DNA of 32,482 bases from Bacteroidales bacterium. Lineage in GTDB: Bacteria > Bacteroidota > Bacteroidia > Bacteroidales > UBA7960. The stretch is from assembly GCA_007131245.1 (NCBI GenBank), contig SLQX01000029.1:1-32482 (forward strand), given 5' to 3'. Under the pieces are notes generated by a model. That model searched no databases, had not been told where the DNA came from, and was given only the letters and a program-made list of their open reading frames with translations. Position numbers and translations under genes: made by a program. Every line of letters begins with the position of its first letter. Position 1 is the stretch's first letter. This document shows, piece by piece, positions 1 through 15,617 of this stretch.

Positions 1-1163
1 GTAAGAACTTTGCAGACCTTGCCTACCAGTGGCTGGAAGATACGCCACCCTATCCGGGTGTCACGATCCCCGATGGTCATGTGGCTTTTGCCATGTTGAA
101 TTATGATGATGGAACCAATCCCGATTTAACCAGCCAGGAGAATGCCCATTACACACGGTTGTATGACCAGGGCTACGAAATAACTTTTGTACGTTTCAGC
201 CGGATGTCAAACTCCGATTTATCAGGTGCCTCGATGATCACAGGCGTGCATTATCCTTCCCTTAACCGTCATATAGTTGAAGAATCGCTGTCTGAAGGAA
301 TAGATGTTTTGCTTATGTATAGCTCAGCCGCTTCAATGGGGGGAGAATGGAACTCCAGCAGTATTACCGGTTACCGAAATTTACATGTGGAAGACAATAC
401 CACTTTTTTAAGTGAATATGATGTGGATGAGGTTGTGTTGATACAGCCAGGAAGTTTAGCCTTTGCTATTACATCCAACCCACCTATTGGGTGGGCAAGC
501 CTTGGGAGAAACACATCCAATGTAAACAATAAGACGGTATTATCTGCAACTTATCCTTCGGCACGTGGATTGATTTATACGTACAACCCAGCCAACTTCA
601 CTGCGGAAGGGGAAGACCTATGGGATGATCTGACCGATTATTTCAGCGAGCCCATTGTGTCTGACTTTTATGAACTCGTTCTCCAGGCGGACCCCGCTGA
701 CATTGGCGTGGAATTAACAGGTTCAGGGCATTACGAAGAAAACGAAACGGTCTCCATAACTGCCACTCTTCCCGACGGATATGAATTTTTAGGATGGGAT
801 GGTAATGTTGATGATTTGGAGTTTTTGGATGATCCCTATTCTTTGACAACTACACTTTTGATGCCAGCCAGAGATGTTGTCTTTACAGCCACCTTTGACT
901 TTGAAATTTTAGTTCAGTCCATAAAAAAAGACGGGGCCAGAATGTTTCCGAACCCATTTACTGATTTTCTCAGGATTCAGGGAGAATTGCCTGTAGAAAA
1001 GCTTGTTGTGTACAACGCCCTTGGCGAAAAAATTATGGTTAAATCCGGCAGGGGACAAACCCACCTGCGGGTAAATACCCATAACATTAAAGCAGGTGTG
1101 TATTTTGTACATTTATATTTTGATGATGGTACTTTGGTTGTTAAAAAAACCATAAAGAATTAA
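1..1163 (+). CDS. T9SS cargo protein, 5'-truncated, InlB-like repeat and type A sorting domain
   Basis: The reading frame is open from the left edge, so the true start and signal peptide lie outside the window; an internal GTG at 81 is not a convincing start. The first ~190 visible codons look like an alpha/beta domain, with strands such as VLLMYS and EVVLIQPGS, and vaguely recall glutamine-amidotransferase-like domains of other secreted Bacteroidota proteins. I do not recognise it firmly and give no function. About 669-902 encodes a divergent InlB-type beta repeat (GYEFLGWDG core). The last ~75 codons (from about 933) are a type A T9SS C-terminal domain: FPNPF, a central strand VVYNALGEK and the closing GVYFVHLYFDDG. 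The product should be secreted through the outer membrane and attached to or released from the surface. A strong terminator follows at once. Confidence 0.85.
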   Translation, partial: KNFADLAYQWLEDTPPYPGVTIPDGHVAFAMLNYDDGTNPDLTSQENAHYTRLYDQGYEITFVRFSRMSNSDLSGASMITGVHYPSLNRHIVEESLSEGIDVLLMYSSAASMGGEWNSSSITGYRNLHVEDNTTFLSEYDVDEVVLIQPGSLAFAITSNPPIGWASLGRNTSNVNNKTVLSATYPSARGLIYTYNPANFTAEGEDLWDDLTDYFSEPIVSDFYELVLQADPADIGVELTGSGHYEENETVSITATLPDGYEFLGWDGNVDDLEFLDDPYSLTTTLLMPARDVVFTATFDFEILVQSIKKDGARMFPNPFTDFLRIQGELPVEKLVVYNALGEKIMVKSGRGQTHLRVNTHNIKAGVYFVHLYFDDGTLVVKKTIKN

Positions 1164-1473: not shown

Positions 1474-4116
1474 ATGATGAAATCTTTTCTTCCCCTGGCT
1501 TGCGTTACTTATATGTTCTTTCTGCTGGCAGGTAGCTACCTGAAGTCCCAGCCTGTTAACCCTTCACCGGTTCCCGAATATGAACCGTCAAAAGCAGTTG
1601 TTATCCGGTATGACTTTAACCCCAATACATGGCCATTGTATGAACATCTCATTAGGGAATGCCAGGAGGCCGTTCATACCTATCTTCTGGTAAACGACAA
1701 TACAGAACGTTACAACCTGCAGAATCTTTTAAGTAATGCTGACATCCCCATGCACAATATTTCTCTGCTGGTGATTCCAGCCCATCGTATGTGGGTGCGT
1801 GATCATGGTCCACTGGCTGTTCAAACGGATGAAGGAACGGCTTTCATGAATTTTCTGGATTACAATAACAGTGATTTTCACGACCAAAACCTGCCTGTGA
1901 GCCTTGCCCATTTTTGGAGCTACCAACATTTCAGCTTTGACTGGATACTGGACGGAGGCAACTATATGGTGGACAATTACGGGACCCTTTTTGCCACCGA
2001 CCGGCTCTATACCAATAATCCTGAATTTGATTCACAGGAGATTGATCAGGTGCTGGAAGAGTATATGGGCATTATAAATATTGTTACGATTAGTGCGCAG
2101 CATGATGATTATTGGGGACATATTGACATGCAAATGAAACTGTTAAATGATACCACCTTTGTGATTTCTTCTGTGGAGGCTGGCTCAGGCCCCAATTATG
2201 ACATCCTTGAATCCAATGTGGAGCATATTGAAACCCTAACTGCTCCCAATGGCAAACCTTACCATATAGCCCGTCTTCCCAAAGCCGACAACTGGAAAAC
2301 TTATACCAACGCAGTCATCCTCAACGATAAGATTATCATACCCGTTTATGACCACCCCAATGATGAGATTGCATTGAATACTTATGCCGGGCTTATGCCC
2401 GATCATACGGTCGTGGGGGTAAACAGTAACGCCATCATTGGGTGGGGAGGAGCAATCCATTGTATTACCAGGCAGGTATTTGGTGATGGACCTGATTTTT
2501 TCAGCTTTGCAATACAAAAGCAAGGACGGGGAGAGGTTAAGGTTAACGGGGAGATATATTCGGGTTCAATGCAGTTTATGCAGAATCAGGAAATTGATCT
2601 GGAGGCAATAGCCGGACAAGGGTTTGAGTTTGAACGCTGGTCAGGAGATGTTTCTTCTGATGAGAATCCGCTCTCCCTTACAATAACAAACGATTTGTTT
2701 ATTGAAACCCGGTTTGAAAGAATTGCGAAGAACTATGTATCATTTTACCCAAATGATACTGTCGCATATTTTGATTCCAGGGAAAACAGTCACCGTTTTG
2801 TAAGAGTTGAGGATCAGGAGTCCTTTAAAGGGGGGATGAAAATGTATTTTTCGCATAACCTGAAATGGAGTGATGGTGATTGTGCTATTACAGAAACCTC
2901 CTTTATTGGAGAGCATTACCTGATGCTTAATACTGGAGAAGATTTGTTTTTTAACCAGCAGGGCGACACCATTCGTATCAATACCCTTGCATTGGAAGGT
3001 GAGACGTGGATGGTTTACCAGGATGAAAACATACATGTTGAGGGAGAAGTGTTGTCCCATGATCCTGATTACTTTATGGGATTGACCGATTCGGTGAAAA
3101 ATATAGGATTTTCGGTATATGATCAGGCGGGAGAACCTGTTGTACACCCACTAAATTTAAAGAATATCAGGCTAAGTCAATCATATGGGATGGTTCAGAC
3201 CCTGAATTTTTTAAACTTCCCTGGTGGTTCACCCGATGAGTTGACAGGGATACGGGAGTTTCCTTTGGAAGGGGTTGCAAGAGTAAAGGCAGGAATCCAA
3301 AATCTCACATGGCTCGATGTGTTTGATTTTCAACCTGGCGACCAACTACATATCCTCGAATCTTCTTCGAAGCAGGGCAATGGCATTGAAAATAAGAAAA
3401 TTTATACTTTTTTCCATCGTATAAACTATCCCGATTCGGTTACATATCATATTCAAAGAAAAATTCTCCAACATCAAACAAATTATTCCGATGGTACAAC
3501 AACGGATACTTTAATTCATGATACCATTGTGAGCGTTTTTCAACCCCACGATGTGTTTGATCGGTTTGCCCTGGAGCCAGTATTTCATAATGGGGACAAC
3601 CAATTTTCTGTAAATACACAAATTCGAGGTCAATGGCCATTTGCAGTTTCCAAGAAACTCAACTACAGGTGGTTTTCAGGTGATGGTGACTGCTTTACCG
3701 AGGACAGTTTTCACGGCTGTTTCATGCATACCTATCACAAAGGATTGGGGGGACCCTATTATACATGCGATTTTGTTGAGCCCCCTGGCTCAGAAAAAAG
3801 GGAGCTGGTATATTTTAAAAAGGAGGAGGAGGTCTGGGGTTCACCCCTGGTTATTACTTCTGCAAATATTTTGTGCCATAAAAATTCGACCCGGGTTTTT
3901 CCTAATCCTGTTTCCGGCAGCTTTTATGTTGATCTTAAGCCAGGCATGGCTCCTGCAGGTATAACACTTACTGATCTTGCAGGTAAGCTTGTGTTATCAC
4001 ATGAATTGCAAGCAGAGCAACAAAGTATCAATGTTGAACATCTGAAAGCGGGTGTTTATTTATTCCGGATTCTGAGCAGGAAAATGGAAAAATCAGGGAA
4101 AATTATATTACAGTAG
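1474..4116 (+). CDS. Secreted PPAD-like peptidylarginine/agmatine deiminase family protein with T9SS signal
   Basis: This 880-aa protein starts with a signal peptide (hydrophobic stretch ~4-22). Residues ~30-340 match the PAD_porph/agmatine deiminase family (guanidino-modifying superfamily), which hydrolyses a guanidinium group to a ureido group plus ammonia. The catalytic set is visible: MWVRDHGP (D110), GHID (H216, D218), YTNAV (N279) and GGAIHC (C330). Their spacing matches Porphyromonas gingivalis PPAD (D130, H236, D238, N297, C351) within three residues. The two PPAD arginines that bind a C-terminal arginine carboxylate fall on N132 and D134 here (YNNSDFHD), so the substrate may differ. 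An InlB-like repeat (~345-416) and a ~375-residue region I do not recognise follow. A type A T9SS sorting domain (from ~FPNPVSG) ends the protein. P. gingivalis PPAD is also a T9SS cargo but is much shorter. The family assignment is firm; the substrate is unknown. Confidence 0.88.
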   Translation: MMKSFLPLACVTYMFFLLAGSYLKSQPVNPSPVPEYEPSKAVVIRYDFNPNTWPLYEHLIRECQEAVHTYLLVNDNTERYNLQNLLSNADIPMHNISLLVIPAHRMWVRDHGPLAVQTDEGTAFMNFLDYNNSDFHDQNLPVSLAHFWSYQHFSFDWILDGGNYMVDNYGTLFATDRLYTNNPEFDSQEIDQVLEEYMGIINIVTISAQHDDYWGHIDMQMKLLNDTTFVISSVEAGSGPNYDILESNVEHIETLTAPNGKPYHIARLPKADNWKTYTNAVILNDKIIIPVYDHPNDEIALNTYAGLMPDHTVVGVNSNAIIGWGGAIHCITRQVFGDGPDFFSFAIQKQGRGEVKVNGEIYSGSMQFMQNQEIDLEAIAGQGFEFERWSGDVSSDENPLSLTITNDLFIETRFERIAKNYVSFYPNDTVAYFDSRENSHRFVRVEDQESFKGGMKMYFSHNLKWSDGDCAITETSFIGEHYLMLNTGEDLFFNQQGDTIRINTLALEGETWMVYQDENIHVEGEVLSHDPDYFMGLTDSVKNIGFSVYDQAGEPVVHPLNLKNIRLSQSYGMVQTLNFLNFPGGSPDELTGIREFPLEGVARVKAGIQNLTWLDVFDFQPGDQLHILESSSKQGNGIENKKIYTFFHRINYPDSVTYHIQRKILQHQTNYSDGTTTDTLIHDTIVSVFQPHDVFDRFALEPVFHNGDNQFSVNTQIRGQWPFAVSKKLNYRWFSGDGDCFTEDSFHGCFMHTYHKGLGGPYYTCDFVEPPGSEKRELVYFKKEEEVWGSPLVITSANILCHKNSTRVFPNPVSGSFYVDLKPGMAPAGITLTDLAGKLVLSHELQAEQQSINVEHLKAGVYLFRILSRKMEKSGKIILQ

Positions 4117-11089: not shown

Positions 11090-13087
11090 ATGACCAAACT
11101 GATTAATCATAAGCACCCTCTTATTAGCAGAAAACTGATTTTGTCTTTGGTTGTATTTTTCTTTGTACAAAATGTTTGTGCTCAACTATCTGGTGAGCAG
11201 CCTCATGTCGGTTGTGAGCACTTTTGTGCCCGGGTTAAAACCTCTTCTCCCCCAAAAGGTATTTATGAACAGGATAATCGGCTGCATGACTATGATATTA
11301 AGTTTTATGGACTGGACCTTGAAGTTTCTCCCCCTTCTACTTTTCTGGATGGCCATACCAGGGTAGTTGCTGAAGTAACAGAGGATACCATGCGGACCTT
11401 TGTTCTGGAACTTTGGCATGAATTACAGGTCAATGATGTAATTAAAGAAGGAAACAATCTCACGTATTCACATGATGAAAACGTTTTGGAGATTGAACTG
11501 GAAGAAGATCTCTACTCCGGGGGCCTGATTGATGTGAAAGTCTATTATTCCGGGCAGGTAGAGGGTGAGGGGTTTTTCACCGGAATACAAAGTGGAACCA
11601 ACAGTTTTGGCGATCCGGTGTTGTGGACCCTCTCTGAACCCCACAATGCGCGTCAGTGGTTTCCATGCAAGCAAGTTCTTGAGGATAAAGCGGATAGCGC
11701 CTGGGTGTTCATTACTACTCCGTCAGATTTTGTGGCTGCCTCAAATGGTTTGCTACATAATGTTGAGCCATTGGATAACAACCGGTTAAGATATGAATGG
11801 AAAACCTTTTATCCTACAACTTATTACCTTTTATCTATGGCTGTGGGTTATTACCAGGAATACAATTTCTATGCACCCCTTTCCAGCAGTCAGGATAGCG
11901 TAATTGTACAGAATTTTATATACGATTACCCGGAGGTGTTGGAAAGCCAAAAAGACAATCTGGAGAAAACCAAAGACTTCATGCATCTGTTTTCACAGAT
12001 TTGGGGCAACTATCCTTTTGCACAAGAAAAATACGGGCATGCCCAGGCCCCCATGGGAGGCGCCATGGAACACCAAACCATTTCCACCATGGGCTATTTC
12101 GGATTTGACATAACAGCACACGAGTTGGCTCATCACTGGTTTGGAAACCAGGTAAGCTGTGCTACCTGGAGCGATATTTGGATCAATGAAGGGTTTGCTT
12201 CTTATGGTGAGTATCTTGCCCGTGAACATTTACTGGGTCGCGAAGAGGCAGATAGCTGGATGAGATTTGCCCATAGCAATGTAAAATCTGAGCCGGGAGG
12301 AAGTGTTTATGTCCCGCCCATGCAGCTCTCTAATGTTTGGCGAATATTCAATGGTAGGCTGTCTTATCGGAAAGGGGCTGCCATTATACATTTGCTAAGG
12401 TTTGAGATCAACGACGATGAGCTTTTCTTTCATATAATGAAAGACTTTCAAAATACATTTGCACATGGGGTAGCTACGGGGGATGATTATCGTAATGTTG
12501 TGGAGAAAAATACGGGGCAAAGTTGGGAGTGGTTTTTTGACCAATGGTACTATGGTGAAGGGTTTCCCGTTTATGAAATAAAGTGGTGGGAGGATAATGG
12601 GTTCCTTTTTATCCAATCATCTCAGACAACATCTGCCAACCTCCCCGGTTTTTTTGCCGGTACAGTTGAGTTTTTGGTGAAAGGAGATTTCTATGATCAG
12701 CAAGTTAGGTTGTTCCAGGAAGAACCTCTTCAACTGTTTAAAATACCTGTGGACGGTTGCGTAGAGGAGGTTGTATTTGATCCGGATGAGTATATGCTTA
12801 TGGACTATGTGTTGGTGGACTCCTCAGCAATGGCTGACCCTGTTGAGGTTGAAAACATTAACATTGGACCCAACCCGGTTATCGATTTGTTGAATGTTTA
12901 CTTTGAAAGAAAATGGGATCAATCGTCTTACAATATCAGCGATTTACCGGGGCGTATTTTGAAGGAGGGAGATATGACCAGCCAGGAGCATGCCATCAAC
13001 CTTGAAGGCTTGAAAACAGGGATGTATTTGTTGAATATCATTTCCCGGTCAGGAAGCAGGAAAAGCTTCAGGTTTTTTAAAAATTAA
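11090..13087 (+). CDS. Secreted M1 family aminopeptidase-like metallopeptidase with T9SS signal
   Basis: This 665-aa zinc metallopeptidase of family M1 is predicted to remove N-terminal residues from peptides outside the cell. The signal peptide is long (~1-31, ending NVCAQ). The M1 N-terminal beta domain covers ~60-260. The catalytic domain holds HELAHHW (H344, E345, H348), the third zinc ligand E367 in NEGFA 19 residues later, and the transition-state tyrosine Y426 in SYRKGA. The substrate-amine motif is GGAMEHQ (E327), with His replacing the Asn of canonical GAMEN. The large C-terminal helical domain of PepN is absent; QWYYGEGFPVYEIKW marks the end of the catalytic part. A type A T9SS sorting domain closes the protein (from IGPNPVIDLLNV). 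It converges with the S51 gene. The family assignment is firm; specificity is unknown. Confidence 0.93.
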   Translation: MTKLINHKHPLISRKLILSLVVFFFVQNVCAQLSGEQPHVGCEHFCARVKTSSPPKGIYEQDNRLHDYDIKFYGLDLEVSPPSTFLDGHTRVVAEVTEDTMRTFVLELWHELQVNDVIKEGNNLTYSHDENVLEIELEEDLYSGGLIDVKVYYSGQVEGEGFFTGIQSGTNSFGDPVLWTLSEPHNARQWFPCKQVLEDKADSAWVFITTPSDFVAASNGLLHNVEPLDNNRLRYEWKTFYPTTYYLLSMAVGYYQEYNFYAPLSSSQDSVIVQNFIYDYPEVLESQKDNLEKTKDFMHLFSQIWGNYPFAQEKYGHAQAPMGGAMEHQTISTMGYFGFDITAHELAHHWFGNQVSCATWSDIWINEGFASYGEYLAREHLLGREEADSWMRFAHSNVKSEPGGSVYVPPMQLSNVWRIFNGRLSYRKGAAIIHLLRFEINDDELFFHIMKDFQNTFAHGVATGDDYRNVVEKNTGQSWEWFFDQWYYGEGFPVYEIKWWEDNGFLFIQSSQTTSANLPGFFAGTVEFLVKGDFYDQQVRLFQEEPLQLFKIPVDGCVEEVVFDPDEYMLMDYVLVDSSAMADPVEVENINIGPNPVIDLLNVYFERKWDQSSYNISDLPGRILKEGDMTSQEHAINLEGLKTGMYLLNIISRSGSRKSFRFFKN

Positions 13088-13234: not shown

Positions 13235-15586
13235 CTAGAGCTGCTTGACAAACTTTAAAGTATAGGTGTTACCCCTTTCGTCAACCGCCGATAGAAGATA
13301 AAATCCGGGAGCCAATGACGAAATGTTGAGCTGTTTGTGCTTGTGAAATGGTGTTTGATTTTCTTTTATCAACCGTCCATCCGGAGCTAATATACTGAGA
13401 TTAATAATGGGTGCTGCATGATTGTTGTTAATATTTAGCACCTGTCTTGCAGGATTAGGGTAGATTGATATGTCAGGCTTGCCAGACTCTGTGGCAATAT
13501 ATGATGGCAAATCCGTTGAAAGGGTAATGCCAGGTGTAATCAGCCAGTTATCGGGATGAAGGGCACTTCCGTCAAAAAAGGATGCACTCAGCATATATCC
13601 GTCACCTTCATAGGCGTCATAGTACCAACTATACCCATCTCCATTATGATCAACCACCTGCCAGTTTTCGGGCAACCAATCTGAATCAACTTCCTCCCCG
13701 TTTAATCCTCCCTGGAAATCTTCCTCGAAAATCACTACCCTTTCTTTGTTTTCTTCTTCTGGTGTGAATTCAACCTTTACATTGTTGATCATGATGCGGT
13801 CATTGTTTGTGCTTTCATGGTGGCGGTAAGCAATGTGCACCTCTTGATCTTCATATTCTGAAATGGAAATACTTCTTGGTTGATACTCCCAGTTTTCTAC
13901 GGAGGGGTCTAGTGTTTCATCAAAAATCTTTACAAAATTCTGTGGATCGGTACCATCTATAGAAATCCATACGCTGTAATACTCCTCGCGATACTGGGGT
14001 GTGTTGGCCGTGGAAGCCACGTCCCAGCGAAGGAGTACTCCCTTGTCATCCTCCGGTGTTTCTTTAAATGCCCCTGCAACAACAATATTTGTATCCAGGC
14101 TTTCATGGGTAAATGTAGCCTCTGTTACCGGTTCGTGGTTGTTGTCAAGAAGGGTGTCTCCGTTGACAGTCCAGTGGCTGAATTCGTATCCGTGGGCTGG
14201 TTCTGCGGAGAATACTATGTCAACACCTTCTTCTATGGATTCGCCGTTTATGACCGGGCTGTTGTTGCTGGTGGCTGAAATCTCACCCTCGCCCTGGCCG
14301 GTATAATAGTTTACGGTATAAGTTCCATCGGGGGCTTCTTCAAATTCCAGCTGTACAAAAATCTTTTTTTCCAGTTCGTTGTAAGAAAATCTTGTGGAAA
14401 TCTCTGGCTGCAACTCTCCGTTTAGCATCCATTCTTTAACGCGGTAGCCCTCATCGGGTAATGCTATGAAAACAACATCATTTCCCAGGGTAACAGCATC
14501 TCCCGGGTTAATTGGCTGTTGCTCCACAGTTGCTTCAATCACTCCGTTATCCCCGGTAACTTCAAAAGATACCTCTGCACCATATGTCAGCTGGCCATTC
14601 TCGGCGTACCAGTAGAACCACTCTCCTCCTGTTCCTTCCTCCATGTTTGTGAGATCAAATGTAGAGGAGCCCGAAAAATCTCCTTTTGCTTTGTATACCG
14701 AAACGGCTTTTTTATCGTGATACCAATGCAACGGTTCCTGGGTTTCACAGACTTCCGGGGCCTCGTTAGCCCTTACAAAATAGGCGTAATCGTCATGATC
14801 TGGATGACCAAAAACGCGGGCCAAACCATTTTCATCAACTCCCACGGCAGTATATTCATCTACCCCGATTCCTCTGGCCGCCATTTCCCAGTCAGCCATC
14901 ATTCGGGCCATAAATGCCATATGTCTGCCATGCCGGTTGTTGTTATCGCCATATATGGCATCGTAATGAGAATCGGTGACAAGGTTTTCAAGGAAGGGGA
15001 CATCCAAAAAGTCCTTTTCAAGCTTAACCCTGAAATGATAGGGGTTGTTAAGTGCTTCTTCACTCCAAACGGTTCCGTTTTCGGCGGTATAAACGACCTC
15101 ACCCAATACGGCAAGGCCTGCACTTGTCCCACCAATGGGGGCTGACTTTTGATTAACGTGATGGTTTAATGCTTCCTGCAGGCAGGTGCCCGACCAGTCA
15201 TGGTAGTAGTTCCACTGGTTACCTCCGGCCAGAAACACCAACTCAGAATCTTCAACGGCCTGGCATACATCCGGATTGTCAGCCTCTTGGGGACTTTGTA
15301 TAACAATGGATGTCACTGAGTTTACTTCAACCCCCAGTTGGGAGTAGATATAGTTGTTATAGCCGTCGCTCCCTGAGGCTCTCAGTACTACTACATCACC
15401 GCCATTTGCGTGCTCTGTAAGCCATTCCATACCATCATCATTGTCAGAGGCTCCTCCGGCCAAAAGTATTCCAAAAGAGGGTTCTGTTGTCACGTTTTCT
15501 TCTGCTCCAACCCTGTAGAAGTCCTGGGAAAATGTAAATAAGGATAGTGTAATTAGAAAAACCGAAAGTGTGAGTTTTGAGATCAT
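13235..15586 (-). CDS. Secreted cyanophycinase-like S51 peptidase with T9SS signal
   Basis: The protein has 783 aa from the ATG at 15586; a TTG two codons upstream is less likely. A signal peptide (~1-20) precedes a peptidase S51 domain (~35-300). The nucleophile elbow is GGTSAG (S155). H207 in TDSHYDA and E244 in GVDEYTAV align with the His and Glu of the cyanophycinase Ser-Glu-His triad. Cyanophycinase releases beta-Asp-Arg dipeptides from the Asp-Arg storage polymer; the substrate here is not established. Two InlB-like beta repeats follow (~338-417 and ~424-510, core GYEFSHW). Next come two half-modules of a cleaved-adhesin/choice-of-anchor J domain in swapped order (~517-606 C-terminal half, ~618-690 N-terminal half). 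A type A T9SS sorting domain ends the protein (IYPNPARQVLN to GFYLLSAVDERG). The peptidase family is secure. Confidence 0.88.
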   Translation of the reverse strand: MISKLTLSVFLITLSLFTFSQDFYRVGAEENVTTEPSFGILLAGGASDNDDGMEWLTEHANGGDVVVLRASGSDGYNNYIYSQLGVEVNSVTSIVIQSPQEADNPDVCQAVEDSELVFLAGGNQWNYYHDWSGTCLQEALNHHVNQKSAPIGGTSAGLAVLGEVVYTAENGTVWSEEALNNPYHFRVKLEKDFLDVPFLENLVTDSHYDAIYGDNNNRHGRHMAFMARMMADWEMAARGIGVDEYTAVGVDENGLARVFGHPDHDDYAYFVRANEAPEVCETQEPLHWYHDKKAVSVYKAKGDFSGSSTFDLTNMEEGTGGEWFYWYAENGQLTYGAEVSFEVTGDNGVIEATVEQQPINPGDAVTLGNDVVFIALPDEGYRVKEWMLNGELQPEISTRFSYNELEKKIFVQLEFEEAPDGTYTVNYYTGQGEGEISATSNNSPVINGESIEEGVDIVFSAEPAHGYEFSHWTVNGDTLLDNNHEPVTEATFTHESLDTNIVVAGAFKETPEDDKGVLLRWDVASTANTPQYREEYYSVWISIDGTDPQNFVKIFDETLDPSVENWEYQPRSISISEYEDQEVHIAYRHHESTNNDRIMINNVKVEFTPEEENKERVVIFEEDFQGGLNGEEVDSDWLPENWQVVDHNGDGYSWYYDAYEGDGYMLSASFFDGSALHPDNWLITPGITLSTDLPSYIATESGKPDISIYPNPARQVLNINNNHAAPIINLSILAPDGRLIKENQTPFHKHKQLNISSLAPGFYLLSAVDERGNTYTLKFVKQL

Positions 15587-15617
15587 CGTCAATGTTTTTT
15601 GAGGTGGTTTTTTGTTA

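What the first reader, a model, noticed from the sequence alone, without database searches (positions are those of the whole stretch)
1474..4116. PPAD-like secreted deiminase that lacks the C-terminal-arginine-reading pair
The catalytic residues D110, H216, D218, N279 and C330 keep PPAD spacing (offset 18-21 from D130, H236, D238, N297, C351). The positions of PPAD R152 and R154, which bind the carboxylate of a C-terminal arginine, fall on N132 and D134. This suggests an active guanidino-modifying enzyme sent to the surface with a different substrate: internal arginine, agmatine or another guanidine. It is also ~320 residues longer than PPAD.
Basis: partly seen in the sequence, partly recalled or inferred. 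Interest (0 to 1): 0.6.

Follow-up and report, generated by a model that had tools for sequence, protein, structure and literature searches.

The report
Secreted arginine-type deiminase, separate lineage
A bacterium, probably from soda lakes, appears to export an enzyme related to the gum pathogen's citrulline-making enzyme; it keeps the full catalytic machinery but sits on its own branch that lacks the two arginines by which the known enzyme recognises its target, so its true substrate is open and easy to test.

Summary
Window 1474-4116 (+) encodes 880 aa: PAD_porph catalytic domain (35-335), B-repeat, an uncharacterised beta module (about 418-805) and a T9SS type A sorting domain. W107, D110, H216, D218, N279 and C330 match PPAD; the R152/R154 loop holds no arginine. 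The trait is shared by 24 of 24 distinct members of one clade: Bacteroidales-type MAGs, two Saprospirales/Saprospiraceae, one Ignavibacteria. The clade (99/94) stands apart from PPAD-type enzymes and agmatine deiminases. The pair's presence changes only once or twice on the tree, so 'lost from PPAD' is not the natural reading. The clade keeps PPAD's Tyr233 (Y213), has an acid (D160) where PPAD-types have Thr, and its own cations R105 and R/K177. I favour a secreted deiminase of a carboxylate-bearing arginine (free L-Arg, or C-terminal Arg) read by other residues. Internal arginine is disfavoured (human PAD4 keeps both arginines; Y213 would clash), and so is agmatine (R105 where most agmatine deiminases have Asp). 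No activity is shown and no distance could be measured. The extra length is an accessory module absent from shorter clade members. New variant of a known kind.

The parts
1474..4116 (+). whole gene, 880 aa secreted deiminase
1474..1548 (+). signal peptide region (about residues 1-25)
   Evidence: hydrophobic N-terminus read by eye; no signal predictor was run
1576..2478 (+). PAD_porph catalytic domain (residues 35-335)
   Evidence: AlphaFold2 model of residues 25-350, pLDDT 95.8, pTM 0.92
1786..1788 (+). R105 codon, clade-invariant Arg (Ser125 in PPAD, Asp in most agmatine deiminases)
1801..1803 (+). D110 codon (PPAD D130), guanidine binding
1858..1884 (+). loop residues 129-137 without arginine (PPAD R152/R154 loop)
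1951..1953 (+). D160 codon, acid before GG (Thr180 in PPAD; Glu in agmatine deiminases)
2002..2004 (+). R177 codon, candidate relocated cation (Ile197 in PPAD)
2107..2127 (+). D212-Y213-W214-G215-H216-I217-D218 (end of Michaelis loop; Y213 = PPAD Tyr233)
2308..2310 (+). N279 codon (PPAD N297)
2461..2463 (+). C330 codon, catalytic Cys (PPAD C351)
2545..2724 (+). divergent InlB-like B-repeat (residues 358-417)
   Evidence: just over the family cut-off (23.9 vs 23.6 bits)
2725..3888 (+). uncharacterised all-beta accessory module (residues 418-805)
   Evidence: no Pfam match over cut-off here and none on a stand-alone homologue beyond the sorting tail; stand-alone homologues L013-L019; model pLDDT 78.4, no PDB match at E <= 1e-3
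3895..4113 (+). T9SS type A C-terminal sorting domain (residues 808-880)

Best explanation
A T9SS-exported guanidine deiminase of its own PAD_porph lineage ('clade C'). Cys330 and His216 act on a guanidinium held by D110 and D218, assisted by N279 and perhaps the acid D160 (residues shown by alignment; activity inferred). The substrate most likely carries a carboxylate, free L-arginine first, C-terminal peptidyl arginine second, read not by a loop arginine pair but by R177 and/or R105 with Y213; products would be citrulline and ammonia outside the cell (all inferred). The B-repeat and beta module are accessory and not needed for the enzyme.
For: Catalytic residues kept in 23 of 23 aligned clade members and the fold matches (PPAD 5ak7: TM 0.88 by query length, rmsd 2.0; Z 41.0, rmsd 3.0, 318 aligned). 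Clade monophyletic 99/94. R105 in 24 of 24; R or K at 177 in 22 of 24; the two Gly177 members (L087, L088) carry a Lys in the loop instead. PPAD I197 (position 177) frames the same channel as N151-R152 and Y233-N235 (PMC4487231 section 5). Y213 kept in 24 of 24; PPAD Tyr233 binds the substrate carboxylate. The arginine-type enzymes ADI and DDAH1 have an Arg 19 and 18 residues after their catalytic acid that contacts the substrate carboxylate (Glu257/Arg276 in M. penetrans ADI, PMC3474736; Asp127/Arg145 in DDAH1, PMC10958460); here R177 is 17 after D160. The genome has an ADI-family protein and a carbamate kinase over cut-off, so citrulline could be used; only two PAD_porph proteins, both with sorting tails, and no AguB over cut-off, in an assembly 97% complete.
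Against: No activity data. No coordinates could be inspected, so contact of R177 or R105 with a substrate is not shown. The 177/152 contrast rests on one or two changes on the tree; only one independent pair, p = 1. R105 is not exclusive: 8 of 46 sequences with an agmatine-deiminase-type loop have it, and one pair-bearing sequence (L196) has it too. R177 cannot be equated by sequence with the ADI Arg: profile comparison probability 1-3% and gapped there; counted without gaps from the GG motif, the ADI Arg falls on Y179. A cytosolic ADI-family protein makes a second arginine deiminase redundant unless location matters. PPAD too is reported to deiminate free L-Arg (PMC12599369), so that activity alone would not set the clade apart. 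Macromolecular substrates are the usual expectation for a surface enzyme.
Confidence: 0.4

Rival explanations
1. Deiminase of another small guanidine without a carboxylate (agmatine or similar). D212 would bind the amine as Asp220 does in plant agmatine iminohydrolase, in an open site.
For: D212 kept in 23 of 23; MtAIH Asp220 binds agmatine's amine directly (PMC6447857 section 14; equivalence by its distance from His224); acid at 160 and Gly215 as in agmatine deiminases. Eight agmatine-deiminase-like sequences also have Arg105, so Arg there may not exclude agmatine.
Against: R105 stands where MtAIH Asp89 contacts the amine through water (equivalence by its distance from Trp91); the Trp-bearing loop and the Thr-Asp of agmatine deiminases are absent; far below the NCBIfam agmatine deiminase cut-off (97.5 vs 381.8 bits); AguB over cut-off in 0 of 5 genomes that carry this gene. 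D212 is also kept in 35 of 35 clade B rows, so it is no agmatine marker.
Confidence: 0.17
2. Internal-arginine (endo) protein deiminase on surface or foreign proteins.
For: Arg152 is one of the two side chains said to collide with a C-terminally extended substrate in PPAD (PMC4487231); here it is absent. T9SS export fits macromolecular substrates.
Against: The other clashing residue, Tyr233, is kept (Y213, 24 of 24), and vertebrate PAD4 keeps both arginines (R372/R374), so lacking the pair is not the endo signature.
Confidence: 0.15
3. C-terminal arginine deiminase doing the same job as PPAD but reading the carboxylate by other residues, beside a motif-bearing paralogue in the same genome (G000:C276).
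For: Y213 kept; R105 and R177 available; C25 peptidase matches in the genome (5) could expose C-terminal arginine.
Against: The genome already has a motif-bearing clade B enzyme, and PPAD's R152 is reported indispensable. Cleavage specificity of the C25 proteins was not examined; one may be the T9SS sortase.
Confidence: 0.2
4. Non-catalytic or lost-function surface protein.
For: No activity is known to me for any clade member.
Against: Catalytic positions invariant in 23 of 23; catalytic domain 66-68% identical between the window and its four same-genus orthologues against 34-37% for the accessory module.
Confidence: 0.05

Closest known systems
PPAD, Porphyromonas gingivalis peptidylarginine deiminase (4yt9, 5ak7)
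   Same: PAD_porph fold, catalytic residues, Trp127, Tyr233 and Trp343 equivalents, short loop; T9SS tail on the window protein (PPAD's own tail is recalled)
   Different: No R152/R154 equivalents; Asp160 for Thr180; Trp214 for Ile234; Met219 for Cys239; R105, R177; separate clade
Agmatine deiminase / iminohydrolase (2jer, 6nib, TIGR03380)
   Same: Fold; acid before GG; Asp212; Gly215
   Different: No [YF]NxW loop; R105 for Asp in most; Tyr-Trp for Thr-Asp; sorting tail; below the equivalog cut-off
Arginine deiminase (ADI) and DDAH
   Same: Cys-His-acid type active site; an Arg 17-19 residues after the acid
   Different: No PF02274 match; residue equivalence of that Arg not established
Vertebrate PAD1-4
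   Same: Pentein fold (PAD1 5hp5 Z 24.9, rmsd 3.2, 277 aligned)
   Different: PAD4 keeps both arginines and has Ser at the Tyr213 place (PMC4487231)

Membership tests
PAD_porph (PF04371) domain family | profile score over curated cut-off | tested here: met
   164.7 bits vs 25
PAD_porph (PF04371) domain family | guanidine-binding Asp pair, His, Asn, Cys | tested here: met
PPAD-type C-terminal-arginine deiminase | R152/R154 carboxylate-binding pair | tested here: not met
   R152 motif absent in 24 of 24 distinct clade rows; present in 108 of 185 distinct rows
PPAD-type C-terminal-arginine deiminase | Tyr233 of the Michaelis loop | tested here: met
   24 of 24
PPAD-type C-terminal-arginine deiminase | falls in the PPAD clade | tested here: not met
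   clade C 99/94, PPAD clade (8 rows) 100/100; the tool warns of long branches
PPAD-type C-terminal-arginine deiminase | Ig-like domain directly after the catalytic domain | tested here: inconclusive
   Pfam finds a marginal B-repeat there; residues 351-417 were not modelled
PPAD-type C-terminal-arginine deiminase | activity on C-terminal arginine | not testable with these tools
   needs protein
Agmatine deiminase | TIGR03380 equivalog cut-off | tested here: not met
   97.5 vs 381.8 bits; weak test, as four agmatine-deiminase-like proteins of the phylum also missed it (213-301 bits)
Agmatine deiminase | [YF]NxW loop and Thr-Asp before Gly-His | tested here: not met
Arginine deiminase (PF02274) | profile match | tested here: not met
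   not among Pfam matches at E <= 1
T9SS cargo | type A C-terminal sorting domain | tested here: met
   PF18962 44.9 bits, TIGR04183 37.2 bits, both over cut-off. Not universal in the clade: over cut-off in 5 of 10 other members scanned

The most novel reading that the evidence does not exclude
Within PAD_porph there is a second solution for reading an arginine carboxylate, with the cations placed elsewhere (R177, R105) and an ADI/DDAH-like catalytic acid retained, giving a dedicated extracellular free-L-arginine deiminase delivered by T9SS beside a motif-bearing peptidyl-arginine enzyme in the same cell.
Probability: 0.25. Interest if true: 0.6.

Novelty: new variant of a known kind. Interest (0 to 1): 0.42.

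Why it matters
If right, it shows how substrate reading is rewired in the family around PPAD, an enzyme studied for rheumatoid arthritis, and gives a natural comparison that lacks the arginine pair but keeps Tyr233. A 2025 review names PPAD homologues in P. gulae and P. loveana besides P. gingivalis (PMC12599369, passages); the genomes read here hold many secreted relatives with the R152 motif and this pair-less lineage beside them.

Tried and rejected
Chance or artefact: rejected (E = 4.2e-48; same-genus orthologues 66-70% identical in the catalytic domain). 'Pair lost from PPAD': not supported by the tree, though the root is not inferred, the tool warns that long branches meet, and the joining of clade A with clade B is weak (35/8). 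R105 as a clean substitute for R152: weakened by L196 and by eight agmatine-deiminase-like sequences of one unnamed family, f22. Equating R177 with the ADI carboxylate Arg by profile alignment: failed. Statistical coupling of 177 and 152: one independent pair only. Operon partner: a TldD gene begins about 350 bases after the gene in L085/L006 and about 2.1 kb after it in L084 and L086; TldE was seen after it only in L085, the other loci ending sooner; no functional partner seen. Defence system: no PADLOC match. Accessory module: no PDB fold at E <= 1e-3; its model is only moderate (pLDDT 78.4, 13 rows), so a missed fold is possible; VIA-align was not run on it. The T9SS tail is not universal in the clade: of 10 other members scanned, 5 have it over cut-off, L087 below cut-off (20 vs 27 bits), L088 none, and L090, L093 and L098 end in a dockerin type I match instead, L090 running off its contig. 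Literature: (9 papers hold the family name) list no title on pair-less secreted members; no claim beyond those searches. Two papers were opened and not used: PMC11121387 (outline) and PMC10991804 (passages on a more active PPAD variant changed at 231, 232 and 235; it shows that the D212 position can vary in PPAD).

Rows dropped: for alignment A2, the window plus 71 of 98 non-redundant references were used; fragments under 280 aa, copies of the window and near-identical copies had been left out before. The tree used these 72 plus PPAD and four more (77 rows). In one search the YNH of L034 was coded as motif-bearing; recodes it. Counts are over 23 clade rows, those over 185 distinct rows after removing identical cores, 24 of them in the clade (L101, a contig-cut copy, is added there). 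Sampling favours the window's family and order.

Full report
What is there. The gene at 1474-4116 (+) encodes 880 aa. Pfam finds PAD_porph at 35-335 (E = 4.2e-48), a marginal InlB-like B-repeat at 358-417 and a T9SS sorting tail at 808-878; TIGR04183 confirms the tail. Residues 418-805 have no Pfam match over cut-off, but resemble stand-alone proteins of 492-511 aa in other genomes of the order (L013-L019), one of which has only a sorting tail in Pfam. An AlphaFold2 model of residues 25-350 is confident (pLDDT 95.8, pTM 0.92) and matches 1xkn, PPAD and agmatine deiminases best (PPAD 5ak7: TM 0.88, rmsd 2.0; Z 41.0, rmsd 3.0, 318 aligned). The module's model is moderate (pLDDT 78.4) and has no PDB match at E <= 1e-3.

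Checking the finding. Loop alignment is uncertain by one residue, but no shift brings an arginine in. N132/D134 themselves are not conserved; the absence is.

Whose trait it is. Four same-genus genomes carry full-length orthologues (48-49% over 858-864 residues). Five genomes of other genera in the family carry the catalytic domain at 40-44% with other tails. The named collection gave 26 loci: 23 of this clade and three Myxococcota relatives. Of the 23, 16 are 'CSSed' MAGs, four are other Bacteroidetes/Bacteroidales MAGs, two are Saprospirales/Saprospiraceae and one is Ignavibacteria. Soda-lake origin of the CSSed, GEM and DLM names is recalled; the term CSSed occurs in soda-lake sediment papers seen only as a listing. 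In a sample of 198 genomes of the order, matches of this clade appear in 2, with a large gap to the next match (1e-174 against 3e-56); in a sample of 395 of the phylum, only in the window's own genome. It is thus rare and patchy in these samples. Shorter members exist (L087, L088, L105: open frames of 430, 434 and 457 aa, ended by stops), so the extra ~320 residues are not part of the enzyme. Tails vary: of 10 other members scanned, 5 have the T9SS tail over cut-off, L087 is below it, L088 has none, and three carry a dockerin type I match.

Three kinds with the family. Among 185 distinct sequences, 108 have the R152 motif, 46 have an agmatine-deiminase-type loop, and 31 have neither; 24 of the 31 are this clade. 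Motif-bearing sequences fall into a PPAD-like clade A (Tyr233 and mostly Cys239 kept) and a clade B (Tyr233 replaced, Met for Cys239); the window's genome has a clade B member as well (L002, 731 aa). The careful tree (77 rows) supports this clade at 99/94, PPAD's clade at 100/100, clade B at 98/97 and agmatine deiminases at 100/100, and separates this clade plus agmatine deiminases from the rest at 100/96. The tool warns of long branches meeting, and the direct union of A with B is weak (35/8). The R152 motif changes once on the tree if the YNH of L034 counts as motif-bearing, twice if not. With agmatine deiminases as outgroup, the motif arose after this clade split off; the root itself is an assumption.

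Residues that mark the clade. R105, W148, D160, Y213, W214, G215, Q220, K275 and W324 are invariant in 23 of 23 aligned members; some are shared with other groups (Y213 and W324 with clade A, G215 with most agmatine deiminases). D160 takes the place of PPAD Thr180; the position is acidic in 30 of 31 'neither' rows and 46 of 46 agmatine-deiminase-type rows, and in 0 of 108 motif-bearing rows. In ADI and DDAH1 an acid is part of the catalytic triad with Cys and His (PMC3474736 passages; PMC10958460 passages); that it is the acid of this GG motif is inferred from the 19-residue spacing to the Arg in the family's own ADI sequences. Position 177 is Leu or Ile in 108 of 108 motif-bearing rows; in this clade it is Arg in 21, Lys in 1 and Gly in 2 of 24, and the two Gly members have a Lys in the loop. 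In PPAD the equivalent Ile197 frames the same small channel as N151-R152 and Y233-N235 (PMC4487231 section 5 read). Position 105 is Asp in 38 and Arg in 8 of 46 agmatine-deiminase-type rows; MtAIH Asp89, which by its distance from Trp91 is this position, touches the agmatine amine through water (PMC6447857 section 14 read).

How it most likely works. Shown: a protein with a sorting tail and complete deiminase residues in the right predicted fold. Inferred: Cys330 attacks a guanidinium held by D110 and D218, with H216, N279 and perhaps D160 assisting. Inferred and uncertain: the distal end of the substrate is a carboxylate read by Y213 with R177 and/or R105. PPAD's R152 is reported indispensable and R154 less so (PMC4487231 passages; PMC4893104 passages), so some other cation should do that work if a carboxylate is read. 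Internal arginine is disfavoured because PAD4 keeps both arginines and has Ser for Tyr, the opposite of this clade. Agmatine is disfavoured by R105 and the missing loop; the window's genome (97% complete) has only two PAD_porph proteins, both with sorting tails, and no AguB over cut-off. An ADI-family protein and a carbamate kinase are present, so citrulline made outside could be used; uptake and ornithine carbamoyltransferase were not examined.

Results against this reading. The 177/152 contrast is one or two evolutionary events. R105 occurs in eight agmatine-deiminase-like sequences and in one motif-bearing sequence. The ADI Arg could not be aligned to R177. No coordinates were available, so no distance was measured. 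PPAD itself is said to act on free L-Arg as well, so free-arginine activity alone would not set this clade apart.

Verdict. Observation confirmed; interpretation partly supported. The lineage is a new variant of a known kind of enzyme with an open, easily tested substrate question.

Noticed in passing
e.g. loci L002, L020-L025, L110-L128 and most of L144-L211: Secreted-type PAD_porph proteins that do carry the R152 motif are common among the Bacteroidota genomes read here (108 of 185 distinct sequences), although a 2025 review names only P. gulae and P. loveana besides P. gingivalis. Clade B keeps the motif but not Tyr233.
   Followed up: partly
L090, L093, L098: Three clade members end in a dockerin type I match instead of a T9SS tail (L090 runs off its contig): a deiminase on a dockerin is unusual.
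   Followed up: no
window 13235-15592 (-): T9SS-tagged peptidase S51 (cyanophycinase/PepE-like by family) with a B-repeat and a cleaved-adhesin match; such an enzyme might release Arg-containing dipeptides, but no link to the deiminase was shown.
   Followed up: no
window 2725-3888: Orphan all-beta module that also occurs alone as about 500-aa proteins in other genomes of the order; no Pfam family and no PDB fold found.
   Followed up: partly
L129-L133, L135, L137, L138: Agmatine-deiminase-like proteins of about 349 aa, all from one unnamed family (f22), with Arg at position 105 where others have Asp; their substrate may not be agmatine.
   Followed up: no
L106-L108 and L044/L154: Myxococcota and one same-order form with R177 plus a single loop arginine at the R154 side: a possible intermediate arrangement.
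   Followed up: no
window 11090-13087 (+) and 3-1163 (+): T9SS-tagged M1-family peptidase, and the end of another B-repeat/T9SS protein just upstream of the deiminase.
   Followed up: no
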